A DNA stretch of 64,000 nucleotides from Microvirga brassicacearum. Lineage in GTDB: Bacteria > Pseudomonadota > Alphaproteobacteria > Rhizobiales > Beijerinckiaceae. Shown piece by piece: positions 10,699 through 50,890 of the stretch. A program made the position numbers and the translations under genes. Within the stretch, counting starts at the first letter, position 1, and the number at the start of each line of letters is the position of its first letter. The notes below the pieces were generated by a model. That model was not told the DNA's origin, ran no database searches, and was given only the letters and a program-made list of their open reading frames with translations. Location: the NCBI RefSeq assembly GCF_008757455.1, contig NZ_VCMV01000007.1, positions 62,001 through 126,000 on the forward strand, in the 5' to 3' direction.

Positions 10699-10841
10699 CG
10701 TCTTTCCGGGGCCGCGAAGCGGAGCCCGGAACCCAGACGCGCTCGCCTTGCAGGACAAGGCAGCGACGGCCGGCACTGCTCGTTCTGATCCTTTAGCGTT
10801 TATAGGTTCCGGGCTCTCGCTCCGCTCGCCCCGGAATGACG
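10699..10841. repeat. palindromic dispersed repeat, family A copy 1
   Basis: A 143-base element with inverted ends: it opens CGTCTTTCCGGGGCCGCG and closes with the complementary CGCCCCGGAATGACG, and it carries internal GCGAAGCGGAGCCCGGAAC. Two more copies of the same design lie at 34529 and 34686. It fills the whole space between the small membrane gene and the convergent GNAT-like gene. Confidence 0.8.
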
Positions 10842-12100: not shown

Positions 12101-12241
12101 TCCCTCCCCCTTGCGGGGGCTCAGGGTGGGGGTCGCAAAGTCAAGATGCGGCGTCTTCAAGTTCTCGCCGCTTCTTTCGATTTGCGTTCAACCCAGTCGT
12201 TCGACCCCCACCTCCAACTCCTCCCCGCAAGGGGGAGGAGA
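12101..12241. repeat. palindromic dispersed repeat, family B copy 1
   Basis: The ends are inverted copies: TCCCTCCCCCTTGCGGGGG followed by CAGGGTGGGGG on the left, and CCCCCACC then CTCCCCGCAAGGGGGAGG on the right. It lies in the 237-base space between two minus-strand genes. Two further copies lie at 50628-50890. Confidence 0.75.
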
Positions 12242-12251
12242 GCGGTCGGAC

Positions 12252-16565: not shown

Positions 16566-16996
16566 TCCTGCCCCAAGGACGGGCTGCGCCGCGGGCTTAT
16601 CGACCGACTGCTGCTTAAGCCCGACGCTGGATAACCGAGCCTTGCCTTTGCGCCGGCACCTGCTAGCGTAGGAGTGACATTACAGAATATCAGGAATATC
16701 GGGCTCTTGTGTTGTCCGATGTTTCCTTTATGTTCACATCTCATACGCCCCTCGAAGGGGCAGTTATGCCTTACGGATGCTCAGGTCCGCCGCATCTCCT
16801 GGGAGTTCGTAGGCTCGGCCAGGCTGGGGACGATTGTTGCCTCTACAACACCGTCTCCAGCCGGCCACCTTTCCTGGCGCCCGTATCCGTTTCACTGCCA
16901 TCAACAGATCTTTCGCGGATTTGATGGGCCACCGCCTCGATCGAGGAATAGCGCTCGTCATCCTTGAGACGTTCCGTCCTTGCCACGGAGGATGAC
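16566..16996. other. long gap after divK where pleD is expected
   Basis: These 431 bases separate divK from the DinB-superfamily gene. The only sequence structure I can point to is a CCCCTCGAAGGGG hairpin near 16747-16759 and a possible 47-codon frame on the minus strand (listed separately). No remnant of a GGDEF or second receiver domain is recognisable in any frame. Part of the gap (about 16670-16740) is less GC-rich than its surroundings. Confidence 0.6.
16843..16986 (-). CDS. possible 47-residue protein
   Basis: A GTG-to-TAG frame of 48 codons coding for a very hydrophilic peptide (VARTERLKDDERYSSIEA at the start, basic at the end). The amino-acid mix of the first half and its GC-rich third positions look protein-like. 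Against it, no ribosome site precedes the GTG, and the start lies only 10 bases from the divergent GTG of the DinB-superfamily gene. No family is recognised; treat as a candidate only. Confidence 0.25.
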   Translation of the reverse strand: MARTERLKDDERYSSIEAVAHQIRERSVDGSETDTGARKGGRLETVL

Positions 16997-34528: not shown

Positions 34529-34673
34529 CGTCATTCCGGGGCCGCGCCAGCGGAACCCGGAACTCATACCCGCTGAGATTCCCGAACAGGGCGCCATCGG
34601 AGCCGTCGCGCTTCTTTTCACCGGTCGGCGTTTATGGGTTCCGGGTTCGCGTTTCACGCGCCCCGGAATGACG
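34529..34673. repeat. palindromic dispersed repeat, family A copy 2
   Basis: A 145-base element opening CGTCATTCCGGGGCCGCG and ending CGCGCCCCGGAATGACG, with the same design as copies at 10699 and 34686. Twelve bases separate it from copy 3. Confidence 0.85.
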
Positions 34674-34685
34674 TTGGCGCCACCC

Positions 34686-34819
34686 CGTCATTCCGGGGCC
34701 GCGCAGCGGAGCCCGGAACCCATACGCGCAGAGGTCGCTGGATAGACCCGTCCATCACGCAGCCTTCGAACGACAGCGCATATCCGTTCCAGGTTCGCGC
34801 TTCGCGCTCCGGAATGACG
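34686..34819. repeat. palindromic dispersed repeat, family A copy 3
   Basis: A 134-base direct repeat of copy 2 with a different interior but the same inverted ends (CGTCATTCCGGGGCC and TCCGGAATGACG). Together with copy 2 it fills most of the 424-base space between aidB and pyrB. Confidence 0.85.
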
Positions 34820-34890: not shown

Positions 34891-35838
34891 ATGAGTGACA
34901 CACCCCGACCCGTTTTTCCCCATCGCCACCTGCTCGGAATCGAGGGGTTGTCCGCGCTGGATCTCACCGCCTTACTCGATCTTGCCGACGAGCAGGTCGA
35001 GGTCAGCCGGCAGGTCGAGAAGAAAAAATCGACCCTCCGCGGCCGCACCCAGATCAACCTGTTCTTCGAGCCGTCGACGCGCACCCAATCCTCGTTCGAA
35101 ATCGCCGGCAAGCGCCTTGGCGCCGATGTGATGAACATGTCGGTCGCGTCCTCCTCGGTGAAGAAGGGCGAGACGCTAGTCGATACGGCCGCGACCCTGA
35201 ATGCCATGCGGCCCGACCTCATTATCGTGCGCCACCACGCGGCAGGCGCCGTGCATCTGCTCGCGCAGAAGGTCGATTGCTCGGTGGTCAATGCCGGCGA
35301 CGGCGCGCACGAGCACCCGACACAGGCGCTGCTCGACGCGCTCACGATCCGCCGCAACAAGGGCGGCATCGAGGGGCTTACGGTGGCGATCTGCGGCGAC
35401 ATCGTGCATTCGCGGGTCGCCCGCTCGAACATGCTGCTGCTGGCGACCCTTGGCGCGCGCGTGCGCCTCGTCGCCCCATCGACCCTGCTGCCGCCCGGAA
35501 TCGAAGGGCTCGGCTTCGAGACCTTCACGGACATGCGCCGTGGGCTGGACGGCGCCGATATCGTCATGATGCTGCGCTTGCAGCGCGAGCGCATGAACGG
35601 CTCGTTCGTGCCGTCCACCAAAGAATATTTCCGCTTCTACGGTCTCGATCAGGAAAAGCTTTCCTGGGCGAAGCCCGATGCGCTGGTGATGCATCCGGGA
35701 CCGATGAATCGCGGCGTCGAAATCTCCTCAGAAGTCGCCGATGGCGCGCAATCGCTGATCCGCGAGCAGGTTGAAATGGGCGTGGCCGTGCGCATGGCGG
35801 TGCTGGAGGCTCTGGCGAGCCATTTGCCGAATCGATAG
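34891..35838 (+). CDS. pyrB: aspartate carbamoyltransferase catalytic subunit
   Basis: A 315-residue enzyme that condenses carbamoyl phosphate and aspartate, the first committed step of pyrimidine synthesis. Motifs are the carbamoyl-phosphate loop [30 protein letters not shown], the [10 protein letters not shown] helix, and the aspartate-loop [10 protein letters not shown]. The regulatory pyrI is absent. Only four bases separate its stop from the repeat that precedes the DUF559 gene; pyrC follows that insertion, so pyrB and pyrC are an operon interrupted by the element. Confidence 0.96.
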
Positions 35839-35841
35839 AAA

Positions 35842-35898
35842 CCTTCCCTCTCCCCTCTGCGGGAGAGGGTGGCCGCCGAAGGCGGTCGGGAGAGGGGC
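35842..35898 (+). repeat. hairpin repeat, family C copy 1 (left flank of DUF559 gene)
   Basis: A 57-base element of nested symmetry: CCCTCTCCCC at the left end, a central GGCCGCC-GAA-GGCGGTC stem, and GGGAGAGGGG at the right end. It is the reverse complement of copy 2 at 36270-36326. Its right end (GAGAGGGG) lies just before the DUF559 ATG and would act as its ribosome site. Confidence 0.85.
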
Positions 35899-35899
35899 C

Positions 35900-36340
35900 A
35901 TGACGATCAGAAAAAACCAGGTCCCCACCGCACTCCGCGACTTCGCAAAGGAGCAACGCTCCCTTCAGACTCGTGCCGAAGATCGGTTCTGGCAGCAGGT
36001 TCGGGCGGGCCGATTCCACGGCTATAAATTCAAGCGACAGGTTCCCATCGCTCCATACATCGTGGATTTCCTTTGTTCTGCCGCGAGGGTGATCGTCGAA
36101 CTCGACGGGCCGCCACATGACACGCCTGAACAGCGAGCGCACGATCGAGCGCGGGATGCGTTTCTTCAGCGCCAGGGCTTTCAGGTGCTGCGCTTTTCGA
36201 ATGATGTGATGCTGGGTAACGGCAATCTGGTGCTTGACTCTGTGCGCGCGGCAATTGAATCCCAGCTCTGCCCCTCTCCCGACCTGCTTCGCAGGCCACC
36301 CTCTCCCGCAGAGGGGAGAGGGAGAGGGAAACCCGCATGA
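35900..36340 (+). CDS. DUF559 endonuclease-like protein inside repeat-flanked cassette
   Basis: A 146-residue protein of the DUF559 family, a relative of the very-short-patch repair (Vsr) endonuclease fold. The core has KFKRQVPIAPYIVDFLCSAARVIVELDGPPHD, where the aspartate of VDF and the E-x-D pair of VELDG match the metal-binding acids of PD-(D/E)XK enzymes. The last about 23 residues (CPSPDLLRRPPSPAEGRGRG) are translated from the flanking repeat copy 2, so the true protein fold probably ends near residue 123. The gene starts at the edge of copy 1 and its stop overlaps the pyrC start (ATGA). Its function is unknown. Confidence 0.82.
   Translation: MTIRKNQVPTALRDFAKEQRSLQTRAEDRFWQQVRAGRFHGYKFKRQVPIAPYIVDFLCSAARVIVELDGPPHDTPEQRAHDRARDAFLQRQGFQVLRFSNDVMLGNGNLVLDSVRAAIESQLCPSPDLLRRPPSPAEGRGRGKPA
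36270..36326 (-). repeat. hairpin repeat, family C copy 2 (right flank of DUF559 gene)
   Basis: Inverted copy of the element at 35842. The central stem differs in sequence (CCTGC-TTC-GCAGG instead of CCGCC-TTC-GGCGG), yet both strands of the stem changed together, so pairing is preserved. Its plus-strand purine-rich right end (GAGGGGAGAGGGAGAGGG) lies just before the pyrC ATG. Confidence 0.85.
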
Positions 36341-37635
36341 CGTCGTCTCATCCTCCGCTCCTCCTGAAAAACGCCTGGCTCGTCGATCCCGCCACCGGGC
36401 ACGAGGAACGCGGGGGCGTGCTGATCGAGGGTGGGCTCATCAAGGCACTCGGTCCCGCCGTTGCGGCTCCCGAGGGCGCCGAGGTGATCGATTGCGGCGG
36501 GCAGGTGCTGGCGCCGGGTCTGATCGACATGCGGGCGTTCATCGGGGAGCCGGGAGCGGCGCACCGCGAGACCCTGAAAAGCGCCGGCGAGGCGGCGGCG
36601 GCGGGCGGCGTCACCACAATCGTGTCGATGCCGGATACCAACCCGGTGATCGATGATCCGGCCATGGTCGATTTCGTCCAGCGTCGGGCGCGCGATACCT
36701 CGATCGTCAATATTCGTCCTGCGGCCGCCCTCACCAAGGGGTTGCTGGGGCAGGAGATGGCCGAGATCGGCCTTTTGCGCGAGGCGGGCGCGATCATGTT
36801 TACCGACGGGGCGCGCTCCATCACCAACGCCCAGGTGATGCGCCGTGCCCTGACCTATGCGCGCGATTTCGATGCCCTCATCGTCCATCATGTGGAGGAT
36901 CCCGACCTTGTCGGCCAGGGGGTGATGAACGAAGGGGAATTTGCCGCCCGGCTCGGTTTGCCCGGCATCCCGCGGGAGGCCGAAACGGTGATGCTGGAGC
37001 GCGACATGCGTCTCGTTCGCCTCACCGGTGGGCGCTACCACGCCGCGATGATCTCCTGCGCCGATTCGGCGGACATCATCCGCACCGCAAAGGCGGCGGG
37101 CCTTCCGGTAACCTGCGGGGTATCGATCAACAATCTGGCGCTGAACGAAAACGACATCGGTGATTACCGCACGTTCTTCAAGCTCTCGCCGCCGCTGCGT
37201 GACGAGGACGATCGGCAGGCGATGATCGCCGCGCTCGCGGACGGCACCATCGACGTCATCGTGTCCGATCACAATCCACAGGATGTGGAGACCAAGCGGC
37301 TGCCATTTGCCGAGGCCGAAGACGGCGCAGTCGGGCTCGAAACATTGCTGTCCGCGGCCCTGCGGCTCCTCCACGCGGATCTCATTTCGCTGCCTCAGCT
37401 CCTGCGCGCACTCTCCACCAGACCCGCTGAAATCCTTGGTTTGCCGGCCGGGCGGCTCGAATGCGGCGCGCCTGCGGATCTCATCGTGTTCGATCCCGAC
37501 GCGCCCTACGTTCTCGACAAACGGCAATTGCGCTCGCTATCCAAGAACACGCCGTTCGAGGAAGCCCGTCTGGAAGGGCAGGTGACGCTGACGCTGGTTG
37601 CGGGCAGGATCGTGTTCGACCGCCGGTCCACCTGA
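36337..37635 (+). CDS. pyrC: dihydroorotase-family protein (PyrC, HxH motif lost)
   Basis: A 432-residue amidohydrolase of the dihydroorotase group encoded after pyrB. The overall family layout is clear: LAPGLIDMR, AAAAGGVTTIVSMPDTNPVIDDP, SDHNPQDVETKRLPFAEAEDG and the C-terminal RPAEILGLPAGRL. However, the metal-binding HxH of active enzymes is replaced by MRAFIGEPG (positions about 66-74), and the carboxylated lysine is not evident. This type is found beside pyrB in other alphaproteobacteria and may serve as a non-catalytic partner for aspartate carbamoyltransferase, as in Pseudomonas. Inference: an active dihydroorotase should exist elsewhere in the genome. Confidence 0.9.
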   Translation: MTSSHPPLLLKNAWLVDPATGHEERGGVLIEGGLIKALGPAVAAPEGAEVIDCGGQVLAPGLIDMRAFIGEPGAAHRETLKSAGEAAAAGGVTTIVSMPDTNPVIDDPAMVDFVQRRARDTSIVNIRPAAALTKGLLGQEMAEIGLLREAGAIMFTDGARSITNAQVMRRALTYARDFDALIVHHVEDPDLVGQGVMNEGEFAARLGLPGIPREAETVMLERDMRLVRLTGGRYHAAMISCADSADIIRTAKAAGLPVTCGVSINNLALNENDIGDYRTFFKLSPPLRDEDDRQAMIAALADGTIDVIVSDHNPQDVETKRLPFAEAEDGAVGLETLLSAALRLLHADLISLPQLLRALSTRPAEILGLPAGRLECGAPADLIVFDPDAPYVLDKRQLRSLSKNTPFEEARLEGQVTLTLVAGRIVFDRRST

Positions 37636-50627: not shown

Positions 50628-50731
50628 TCCCTTCCCTTTGTAGGAGGATCAGGGTGGGGTGTTGGCGCAAATCTCAAATCGTGTGGCGCCCACACCCCCA
50701 CCTCCAACTCCTCCCCACAAGGGGGAGGAGA
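50628..50731. repeat. palindromic dispersed repeat, family B copy 2
   Basis: TTCCCTTCCCTTTGTAGG and CAGGGTGGGG at the left, then CACCCCCACC and CTCCCCACAAGGGGGAGG at the right: inverted ends as in copy 1 at 12101. It stands directly after the sugar dehydrogenase gene. Confidence 0.75.
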
Positions 50732-50787
50732 GCCCCGGTGGCGCCTGGTAGCGTTGGCTTTTACCTGAACTCCGGCACCGCGCGGTT

Positions 50788-50890
50788 TCCCTCCCCCTTG
50801 TGGGGAGGGTCAGGGTGGGGGTGTGAGCGCCAACCTCGATTCAGTTGGCGCCAGCGCCCGACCTCCAACTCCCACCAAAGGGAGGAGAGT
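50788..50890. repeat. palindromic dispersed repeat, family B copy 3
   Basis: CCCTCCCCCTTGTGGGGAGG followed by CAGGGTGGGG; on the right ACCTCCAACTCCCACCAAAGG GAGGAG closes it, slightly degraded. Tandem with copy 2, 57 bases away. Confidence 0.75.

What the first reader, a model, noticed from the sequence alone, without database searches (positions are those of the whole stretch)
35842..36326. DUF559 gene enclosed by inverted copies of a hairpin repeat between pyrB and pyrC
A Vsr-like endonuclease-family gene is the only cargo between two inverted 57-base repeats. The central stems of the two copies differ in sequence (CCGCC/GGCGG versus CCTGC/GCAGG) but remain paired, so the hairpin is preserved. 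The cassette sits in the pyrB-pyrC operon, four bases after the pyrB stop. The layout resembles REP elements mobilised by RAYT transposases. A DUF559 protein acting on such hairpins, as a mobility or maintenance enzyme, would be a new system. Seen: repeats, covariation and position. Inference: mobility or nuclease role.
Basis: partly seen in the sequence, partly recalled or inferred. Interest (0 to 1): 0.78.

Follow-up and report, generated by a model that had tools for sequence, protein, structure and literature searches.

The report
Nuclease gene paired with triplex-forming repeats
A small gene for a DNA-cutting enzyme of unknown job sits between two folded DNA repeats, and the same pairing was found around most related genes examined, so the enzyme is probably what spreads or maintains a class of bacterial repeat DNA whose origin was unexplained.

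Summary
In detail: a DUF559 (Vsr-like) gene lies between 54-nt inverted repeats (93%) in pyrB-pyrC of a Microvirga genome. This exact hairpin is not dispersed there (two copies, both beside this gene), but the layout is general. All four DUF559 genes of the genome have inverted pyrimidine/purine hairpins, of three arm types. Of 128 DUF559 representatives (<70% identical), 108 have such a hairpin within 300 nt; shuffled flanks gave 0.3. The two sides of a gene share arm sequence in 44 of 56 cases (7.4 expected). Of 241 alphaproteobacterial genomes, 47 of 60 with strong DUF559 have five or more such hairpins, against 11 of 181 others. The hairpins belong to the published intrastrand triplex motif class, whose describers found no transposase or integrase beside it. 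Dispersed copies read here are mostly inverted doublets; DUF559 loci resemble them with the gene as filling. Best reading: DUF559 is the dedicated nuclease of a REP/RAYT-like element family built on an unrelated enzyme. Association, matching sides and genome-level coupling are shown; cleavage and transposition are inferred. No clean empty site was found, and the pyrB-pyrC cassettes look mostly vertically inherited.

The parts
34891..35838 (+). pyrB (aspartate carbamoyltransferase), upstream neighbour
35845..35898 (+). left hairpin unit: pyrimidine arm, purine arm, apical stem-loop, second purine arm (triplex-motif layout)
   Evidence: orthologous units
35900..36340 (+). DUF559 / Vsr-like nuclease gene, 146 aa from ATG, stop overlaps pyrC start
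   Evidence: conserved E27 D56 E67 D69 H73 D82
36270..36323 (-). right hairpin unit, inverted copy, inside the DUF559 reading frame (tail PSPDLLRRPPSPAEGRG)
36337..37635 (+). pyrC-like dihydroorotase, downstream neighbour

Best explanation
DUF559 genes and polypyrimidine/polypurine hairpin units (the intrastrand triplex motif class) form one genetic element family. A unit is: pyrimidine arm, loop, purine arm, often an apical stem-loop, second purine arm. Two units in inverted orientation with a short spacer are the non-autonomous form; the same two units around (or a doublet beside) a DUF559 gene are the enzyme-coding form. Most likely mechanism: the Vsr/EDxHD-type nuclease recognises its own unit when it is extruded as a hairpin or triplex, probably on single-stranded DNA during replication, nicks it, and repair copies or excises the unit-bounded DNA. 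Shown: anatomy, two-sided matching, sequence constraint on the right unit, genome-level coupling, near-invariant putative active site, some deletions ending in the hairpins. Inferred: recognition, cutting, copying, mobility.
For: Hairpin within 300 nt in 108 of 128 DUF559 representatives (56 both sides, 52 one, 20 none); dinucleotide-shuffled flanks 0.0 both, 0.3 one. Of 80 named loci, 67 of the 77 with enough flank have one (31 both, 36 one, 10 none); 132 of 945 fifty-nt bins within 300 nt are occupied against 30 of 5014 from 300 to 2000 nt; bearers include bins titled Anaerolineae, Bacteroidota, Peribacteria. Same genus and order, within 250 nt: 47 both, 23 one, 0 none of 70; random same-genus positions 0 both and 101 one of 20000; background ORFs 0 both and 5 one of 290. 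Two sides share an arm 8-mer in 44 of 56 versus 7.4 expected. Genomes: 47 of 60 with strong DUF559 have at least 5 hairpins versus 11 of 181 others; in 26 families holding both states 23 higher, 1 lower, 2 tied. Own genome: 32 hairpins, reversed pattern 0; nine doublet copies of at least 118 nt at 80-100% identity (query included) share units with the DUF559 locus on contig C43. 152 of 223 hairpins have a further purine arm. Right unit 1 of 53 columns variable. Putative active-site residues 98-100% in 127. Solved relatives 3hrl E 2.7e-35 and, weakly, a mobile intron protein 3r3p E 0.0026.
Against: No precise empty site with a target duplication. Seven pyrB-pyrC cassettes diverge in step with pyrB-pyrC (r 0.81 over 21 pairs), so this copy looks old and mostly vertical. 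20 of 128 representatives lack a hairpin by the strict finder; 13 of 60 strong-DUF559 genomes have fewer than 5 and 11 of 181 others have 5 or more. Recent near-identical DUF559 copies at two loci of one genome were not searched for. The 3r3p match is weak and covers 46 positions. Caulobacter VsrA, a DUF559 protein, was proposed to do mismatch repair (PMC12907096, passages).
Confidence: 0.6

Rival explanations
1. Drive or maintenance without transposition: DUF559 behaves like a free-standing homing or conversion nuclease. It cuts alleles around its units and repair from a sister copy re-installs gene and units, so the pair persists and homogenises but rarely jumps.
For: Vertical-looking pyrB-pyrC cassettes; frozen right unit; cassettes on 7 separate tips of the 48-genome tree (which cannot tell gain from loss); a mobile intron protein among the solved relatives; two Sinorhizobium lineages carry different right-hand doublets at one DUF559 locus.
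Against: Does not by itself explain tens to hundreds of dispersed hairpins in many DUF559 genomes. No intron, intein or interrupted gene at pyrB-pyrC.
Confidence: 0.2
2. Passenger: the hairpins are moved by something else or arise on their own, and DUF559 genes insert into, or are carried by, hairpin-rich spots.
For: 11 of 181 genomes without strong DUF559 have at least 5 hairpins; G276 has 26, and 7 of its 8 listed ones are of the type around the DUF559 gene of its relative G208.
Against: Two sides of a gene tend to carry the same arm type, and different DUF559 genes in one genome carry different types; genome coupling holds within families. Loss of the enzyme gene would also leave orphan hairpins.
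Confidence: 0.1
3. Ordinary regulation: the hairpins are terminators or mRNA stabilisers that insulate a small gene.
For: Position at the ends of the gene; hairpin-forming sequence.
Against: Background ORFs rarely have them (0 of 290 both sides, 5 one); the right unit lies inside the reading frame and the gene overlaps pyrC; the same units occur as doublets with no gene between; the triplex-motif paper cites earlier work that found no promoter or terminator activity (PMC4666352, Discussion part 1).
Confidence: 0.04
4. DUF559 is a Vsr-type mismatch-repair enzyme tied to cytosine methylation; the hairpins are incidental or its genomic hot spots.
For: Caulobacter VsrA contains DUF559, and the SOS response in cells lacking the ScmA methyltransferase depends on it (PMC12907096, passages).
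Against: The immediate neighbours here are pyrB and pyrC, not a methyltransferase; the idea does not predict hairpin coupling. A DNA-cutting enzyme of another kind could give the same SOS result. Flanks of the Caulobacter genes were not examined.
Confidence: 0.06

Closest known systems
RAYT transposases with REP/REPIN repeats (PMC2817692, abstract and outline read)
   Same: One small nuclease gene between two inverted palindromes, inverted doublets dispersed without the gene, repeat and gene types go together, presence of the gene goes with repeat abundance.
   Different: Unrelated enzyme (PD-(D/E)XK/Vsr-like by recall, no tyrosine transposase match); repeats are pyrimidine/purine triplex-type motifs without GTAG or CGTC tag.
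Intrastrand triplex motif TM_ECO, 3610 copies in 262 proteobacterial genomes (PMC4666352; abstract, sections 15, 16, 18, part 1 of 20 and search passages read)
   Same: The repeat class: pyrimidine arm, purine arm, second purine arm, some in inverted pairs. In E. coli KE47 an inverted pair of this motif starts 12 nt after the DUF559 domain of ycjD.
   Different: That paper assigns no enzyme and reports no transposase or integrase near the motifs; its main text has no hit for endonuclease, Vsr or ycjD. The window units have a longer second loop.
EDxHD/Vsr-like homing endonuclease I-Bth0305I (3r3p; one search lists it as mobile intron protein, the enzyme name is recalled)
   Same: Weak profile similarity (E 0.0026) over 46 positions; mobility enzyme of a mobile element (recalled).
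   Different: No intron or intein here; the gene lies between genes; flanking hairpins are not known to me there (recalled).
DUF559 protein structure 3hrl
   Same: Same family by profile, E 2.7e-35.
   Different: Listed only as an endonuclease-like protein; no function in the output.

Membership tests
DUF559 (PF04480) | Profile match above curated cut-off | tested here: met
   118 bits against 20.6, (NCBIfam PRK09767 matches only below its cut-off, 78.7 of 218)
DUF559 (PF04480) | Putative catalytic residues of the PD-(D/E)XK/EDxHD type intact | tested here: met
   E27, D56, E67, D69, H73, D82 at 98-100% in 127 proteins; assignment as catalytic is recalled
Intrastrand triplex motif (TM) class | Pyrimidine arm, purine arm, second purine arm | tested here: met
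   Seen in both window units; 152 of 223 hairpins near representatives have a further purine arm within 55 nt
Intrastrand triplex motif (TM) class | Exact TM_ECO pattern with a 3-nt second loop | tested here: not met
   Window units have about 18 nt between the two purine arms: a related subtype, not TM_ECO itself
REP / RAYT | Enzyme is an HUH tyrosine transposase | tested here: not met
   Pfam gives DUF559 and MTES_1575 only; NCBIfam a DUF559 model; PADLOC a partial match to DpdF, E 2.5e-6
REP / RAYT | GTAG or CGTC tag at the palindrome | tested here: not met
   Absent within both window units, read; tag definition from the title and start of the abstract of PMC3733652 in the listing
REP / RAYT | Enzyme gene flanked by inverted repeats; repeat abundance follows the gene | tested here: met
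   both-sided in 56 of 128 representatives, one-sided in 52
Homing endonuclease gene | Lies in an intron or intein, or interrupts a gene | tested here: not met
   Between intact pyrB and pyrC ORFs
Insertion sequence / transposon | Precise insertion with target duplication, or observed transposition | tested here: inconclusive
   No clean empty site found
Vsr mismatch-repair nuclease | T:G mismatch nicking | not testable with these tools
   needs biochemistry

The most novel reading that the evidence does not exclude
DUF559 is the enzyme of a new class of bacterial mobile element, in which a Vsr-like nuclease recognises triplex- or hairpin-folded repeat units and propagates them; the intrastrand triplex repeats of hundreds of genomes, E. 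coli included, are its non-autonomous copies.
Probability: 0.5. Interest if true: 0.92.

Novelty: categorically new. Interest (0 to 1): 0.85.

Why it matters
Triplex-forming repeats are reported from hundreds of bacterial genomes and linked to genome instability, and their source was open: the authors who described them report never finding transposases or integrases beside the E. coli copies (PMC4666352, passage). A dedicated nuclease family tied to them would explain their spread, give DUF559 (strong in 60 of 241 alphaproteobacterial genomes here, and present as ycjD in E. coli) a job, and add a second, unrelated solution to the problem solved by RAYT and REP. It is directly testable with one small protein and short DNA oligonucleotides.

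Tried and rejected
Tried without result or against the reading. (1) Clean empty sites: at pyrB-pyrC 29 of 48 genomes have 0-42 nt and no hairpin, but cassette junctions carry extra flanking bases, so no exact insertion could be read. (2) E. coli: at least 80% of the sapF-ycjD-fabI query is in 3361 of 5426 genomes; in the six genomes fetched without ycjD, sapF is followed by an efflux operon gene, so this is a swap, not an empty site (also PMC12817139, passages). Two triplex-motif sites that differ between strains are a replacement by another repeat and a ragged deletion. A strain-by-strain test of ycjD against motif number failed because 17 of 18 E. coli records were not searchable; the paper's figures (23 motifs in MG1655, 29 in 55989, 1 in IHE3034) are suggestive but I did not check ycjD in 55989 or IHE3034. 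(3) Sinorhizobium: a seeming DUF559-free site holds a truncated DUF559 gene whose deletion ends in the hairpin; an apparent 124-nt difference between two near-identical strains was an alignment effect. (4) Rfam finds nothing at the repeats at gathering score. (5) Hairpin arm type on a DUF559 tree changes 25 times against a shuffled mean of 47.3, minimum 39, but shared ancestry of orthologous loci inflates this, so it is not main evidence. (6) An early inverted-match score (median 21 against 10.5 for cross-paired flanks) was replaced by the hairpin counts. Considered and rejected: RAYT membership, intron homing, terminator-only reading.

Rows dropped: one search used 70 of 73 loci (short flanks); one search used 199 loci with at least 240 nt on both sides, drawn from 127 distinct proteins (128 of 130 kept, the others with stops or too short) and 76 of the 80 named loci, then reduced to 128 representatives; one search set aside 3 of 80 as short. 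One search counts and family codes were typed by hand; 22 genomes with only weak DUF559 matches were counted as without. (57 loci: 22 both, 20 one, 15 none) holds two E. coli loci, one Geobacillus locus and one locus twice. The five PDB matches below the two best are PvuRts1I twice (E 0.012) and three chance-level toxin chains (E 0.8-1).

Full report
What is in the window. A 441-nt gene (35900-36340, 146 aa, PF04480 E 2.2e-34) lies between pyrB and pyrC and between two inverted 54-nt units (35845-35898, 36270-36323; 93%). Each unit reads pyrimidine arm, loop, purine arm, apical stem-loop, second purine arm. The second unit is inside the DUF559 reading frame, which stops at ATGA over the pyrC start; of seven pyrB-pyrC cassettes five keep this 4-nt overlap and two overlap by 7 nt. 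A pattern for this unit hits four places in the genome: the two window units and two of another type.

The genome. Three other DUF559 genes exist. All four have inverted pyrimidine/purine hairpins on their flanks, of three arm types. A pattern for one hairpin class hits 32 places in 5.2 Mb, the reversed pattern none; five of the 32 lie beside DUF559 genes. Of nine stretches read, six are two units in inverted orientation around a spacer of roughly 30 nt; the rest are the DUF559 locus itself, a contig end, and a looser pair. A BLAST search with one doublet gave 39 matches (pieces and both strands counted apart), nine of them at least 118 nt long at 80-100%, the query included, and also hit all four units around the DUF559 gene on contig C43. 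So doublet and DUF559 locus share ends and differ in the filling.

Is the link general? Same genus and order, within 250 nt: 47 of 70 loci have a hairpin on both sides and 23 on one. Same-genus background: 4 hairpins in 400 kb; random positions 0 both and 101 one of 20000; ORFs 0 both and 5 one of 290. Eighty loci found by protein search in named genomes: of 77 with enough flank, 31 both, 36 one, 10 none; 132 of 945 fifty-nt bins within 300 nt are occupied, 30 of 5014 from 300 to 2000 nt. They include Xanthomonas, Methylobacterium, Rhizobium, and bins titled Anaerolineae, Bacteroidota and Peribacteria. The 57 other loci (class sample, multi-copy genomes, plasmids) gave 22, 20 and 15. After reduction to 128 representatives under 70% identity: 56 both, 52 one, 20 none; dinucleotide-shuffled flanks 0.0, 0.3, 127.7. 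The two sides of one gene share an arm 8-mer in 44 of 56 cases, 7.4 expected on random pairing.

Genome level. Of 241 alphaproteobacterial genomes (completeness filter 95), 60 have a strong DUF559 match and 47 of these have five or more hairpins of one pattern; 11 of the other 181 do (odds ratio 56). In 26 families with both states, DUF559 genomes have more hairpins in 23, fewer in 1, equal in 2. In G208 the eight listed hairpins (of 22) carry the arm and loop sequence found around its DUF559 gene, and none of the eight is on that contig.

Evolution at pyrB-pyrC. The seven cassettes sit on seven separate tips (7 changes; gain and loss cannot be told apart), yet diverge in step with pyrB-pyrC (r 0.81). 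The simplest account is an old cassette lost many times, partly by deletion between the direct copies of the pyrimidine arm, which would leave the lone hairpin. A Sinorhizobium DUF559 gene is likewise truncated by a deletion ending in a hairpin. The right unit has 1 variable column of 53, while no same-length window of the gene has fewer than 13: the DNA itself is under constraint or homogenised, although it is coding.

The enzyme. In 127 DUF559 proteins E27, D56, E67, D69, H73 and D82 are 98-100% conserved. Profile search of solved structures gives 3hrl (E 2.7e-35) and, weakly, 3r3p, a mobile intron protein (E 0.0026), and PvuRts1I (E 0.012). That these residues form an EDxHD/Vsr-type site is recalled knowledge.

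What is known. The repeats fall in the class of intrastrand triplex motifs (PMC4666352; abstract, sections 15, 16, 18, the first part of 20 and search passages read): 3610 copies of one type in 262 genomes, five inverted pairs in E. coli MG1655, linked to instability, and no transposase or integrase found beside them. Its main text has no hit for endonuclease, Vsr or ycjD. E. coli YcjD is annotated as a DUF559 protein; in strain KE47 an inverted pair of the E. coli motif starts 12 nt after its DUF559 domain. Among the papers listed by searches (titles and abstract starts; several lists are capped) I saw none that links the two; subscription journals are mostly not held. Caulobacter VsrA, a DUF559 protein, causes a DNA damage response and was proposed as a mismatch-repair enzyme (PMC12907096, passages). 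The RAYT paper names the same kinds of evidence: inverted flanks, co-evolution, and abundance tracking the gene (PMC2817692, abstract and outline).

Judgement. The pairing of DUF559 with triplex-type repeats is established by several counts. That the protein acts on the repeats is likely (about 0.8). That it moves them is the best single explanation (0.6) but unproven; a homing-like or conversion role without jumping is the main rival. The system works like RAYT with REP but is not a member: the enzyme and the repeat tags differ. I call it categorically new because neither the enzyme family nor this repeat class belongs to a known mobility system that I could find; if a reader prefers to group by layout, it is an unrelated counterpart of RAYT and REP.

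Noticed in passing
window 12204-12243, 50694-50733 and 50789-50809: Copies of a CTCCTCCCC..GGGGAGGAG repeat (98% alike) and a CCCTCCCCC hairpin about 80 nt from one of them, with no DUF559 gene between: probably non-autonomous copies of another type.
   Followed up: partly
window 10699-10841 and 34628-34729: A second dispersed repeat family (CCGGAATGACG / CATTCCGGGGCCGCG) in two places, one just upstream of pyrB.
   Followed up: no
window 16766-16871: EcpR1 small RNA (RF02500), just above the gathering score (60.7 against 60).
   Followed up: no
L082, L083, L089, L103, L118 pyrB-pyrC gap: Five relatives carry a different gene of about 370 nt, alike by eye, in the same gap, so pyrB-pyrC may be a repeated insertion spot.
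   Followed up: no
L090 pyrB-pyrC gap: DUF559 gene replaced by unrelated sequence, with only the DUF559 C-terminal stub and the right unit kept.
   Followed up: no
L165 (Sphingomonas parapaucimobilis): A DUF559 gene with an inverted repeat pair at its ends lies between two transhydrogenase genes: again inside an operon.
   Followed up: partly
L235-L243 (E. coli KE47): The nine E. coli triplex motifs read share a stretch (about GGACAGTCC, by eye) directly before the pyrimidine arm, so the E. coli unit is longer than the published motif.
   Followed up: no
E. coli sapF-fabI (L163, L169, L170): The DUF559 gene ycjD and an efflux operon are alternative occupants of one site in different E. coli strains.
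   Followed up: partly
G080 (unnamed alphaproteobacterium, 3.4 Mb): Eight DUF559 matches at E 1.5e-25 or better (ten in all) and 199 hairpins in one single-contig genome; six of the eight fetched loci have hairpins on both sides, of several types.
   Followed up: partly
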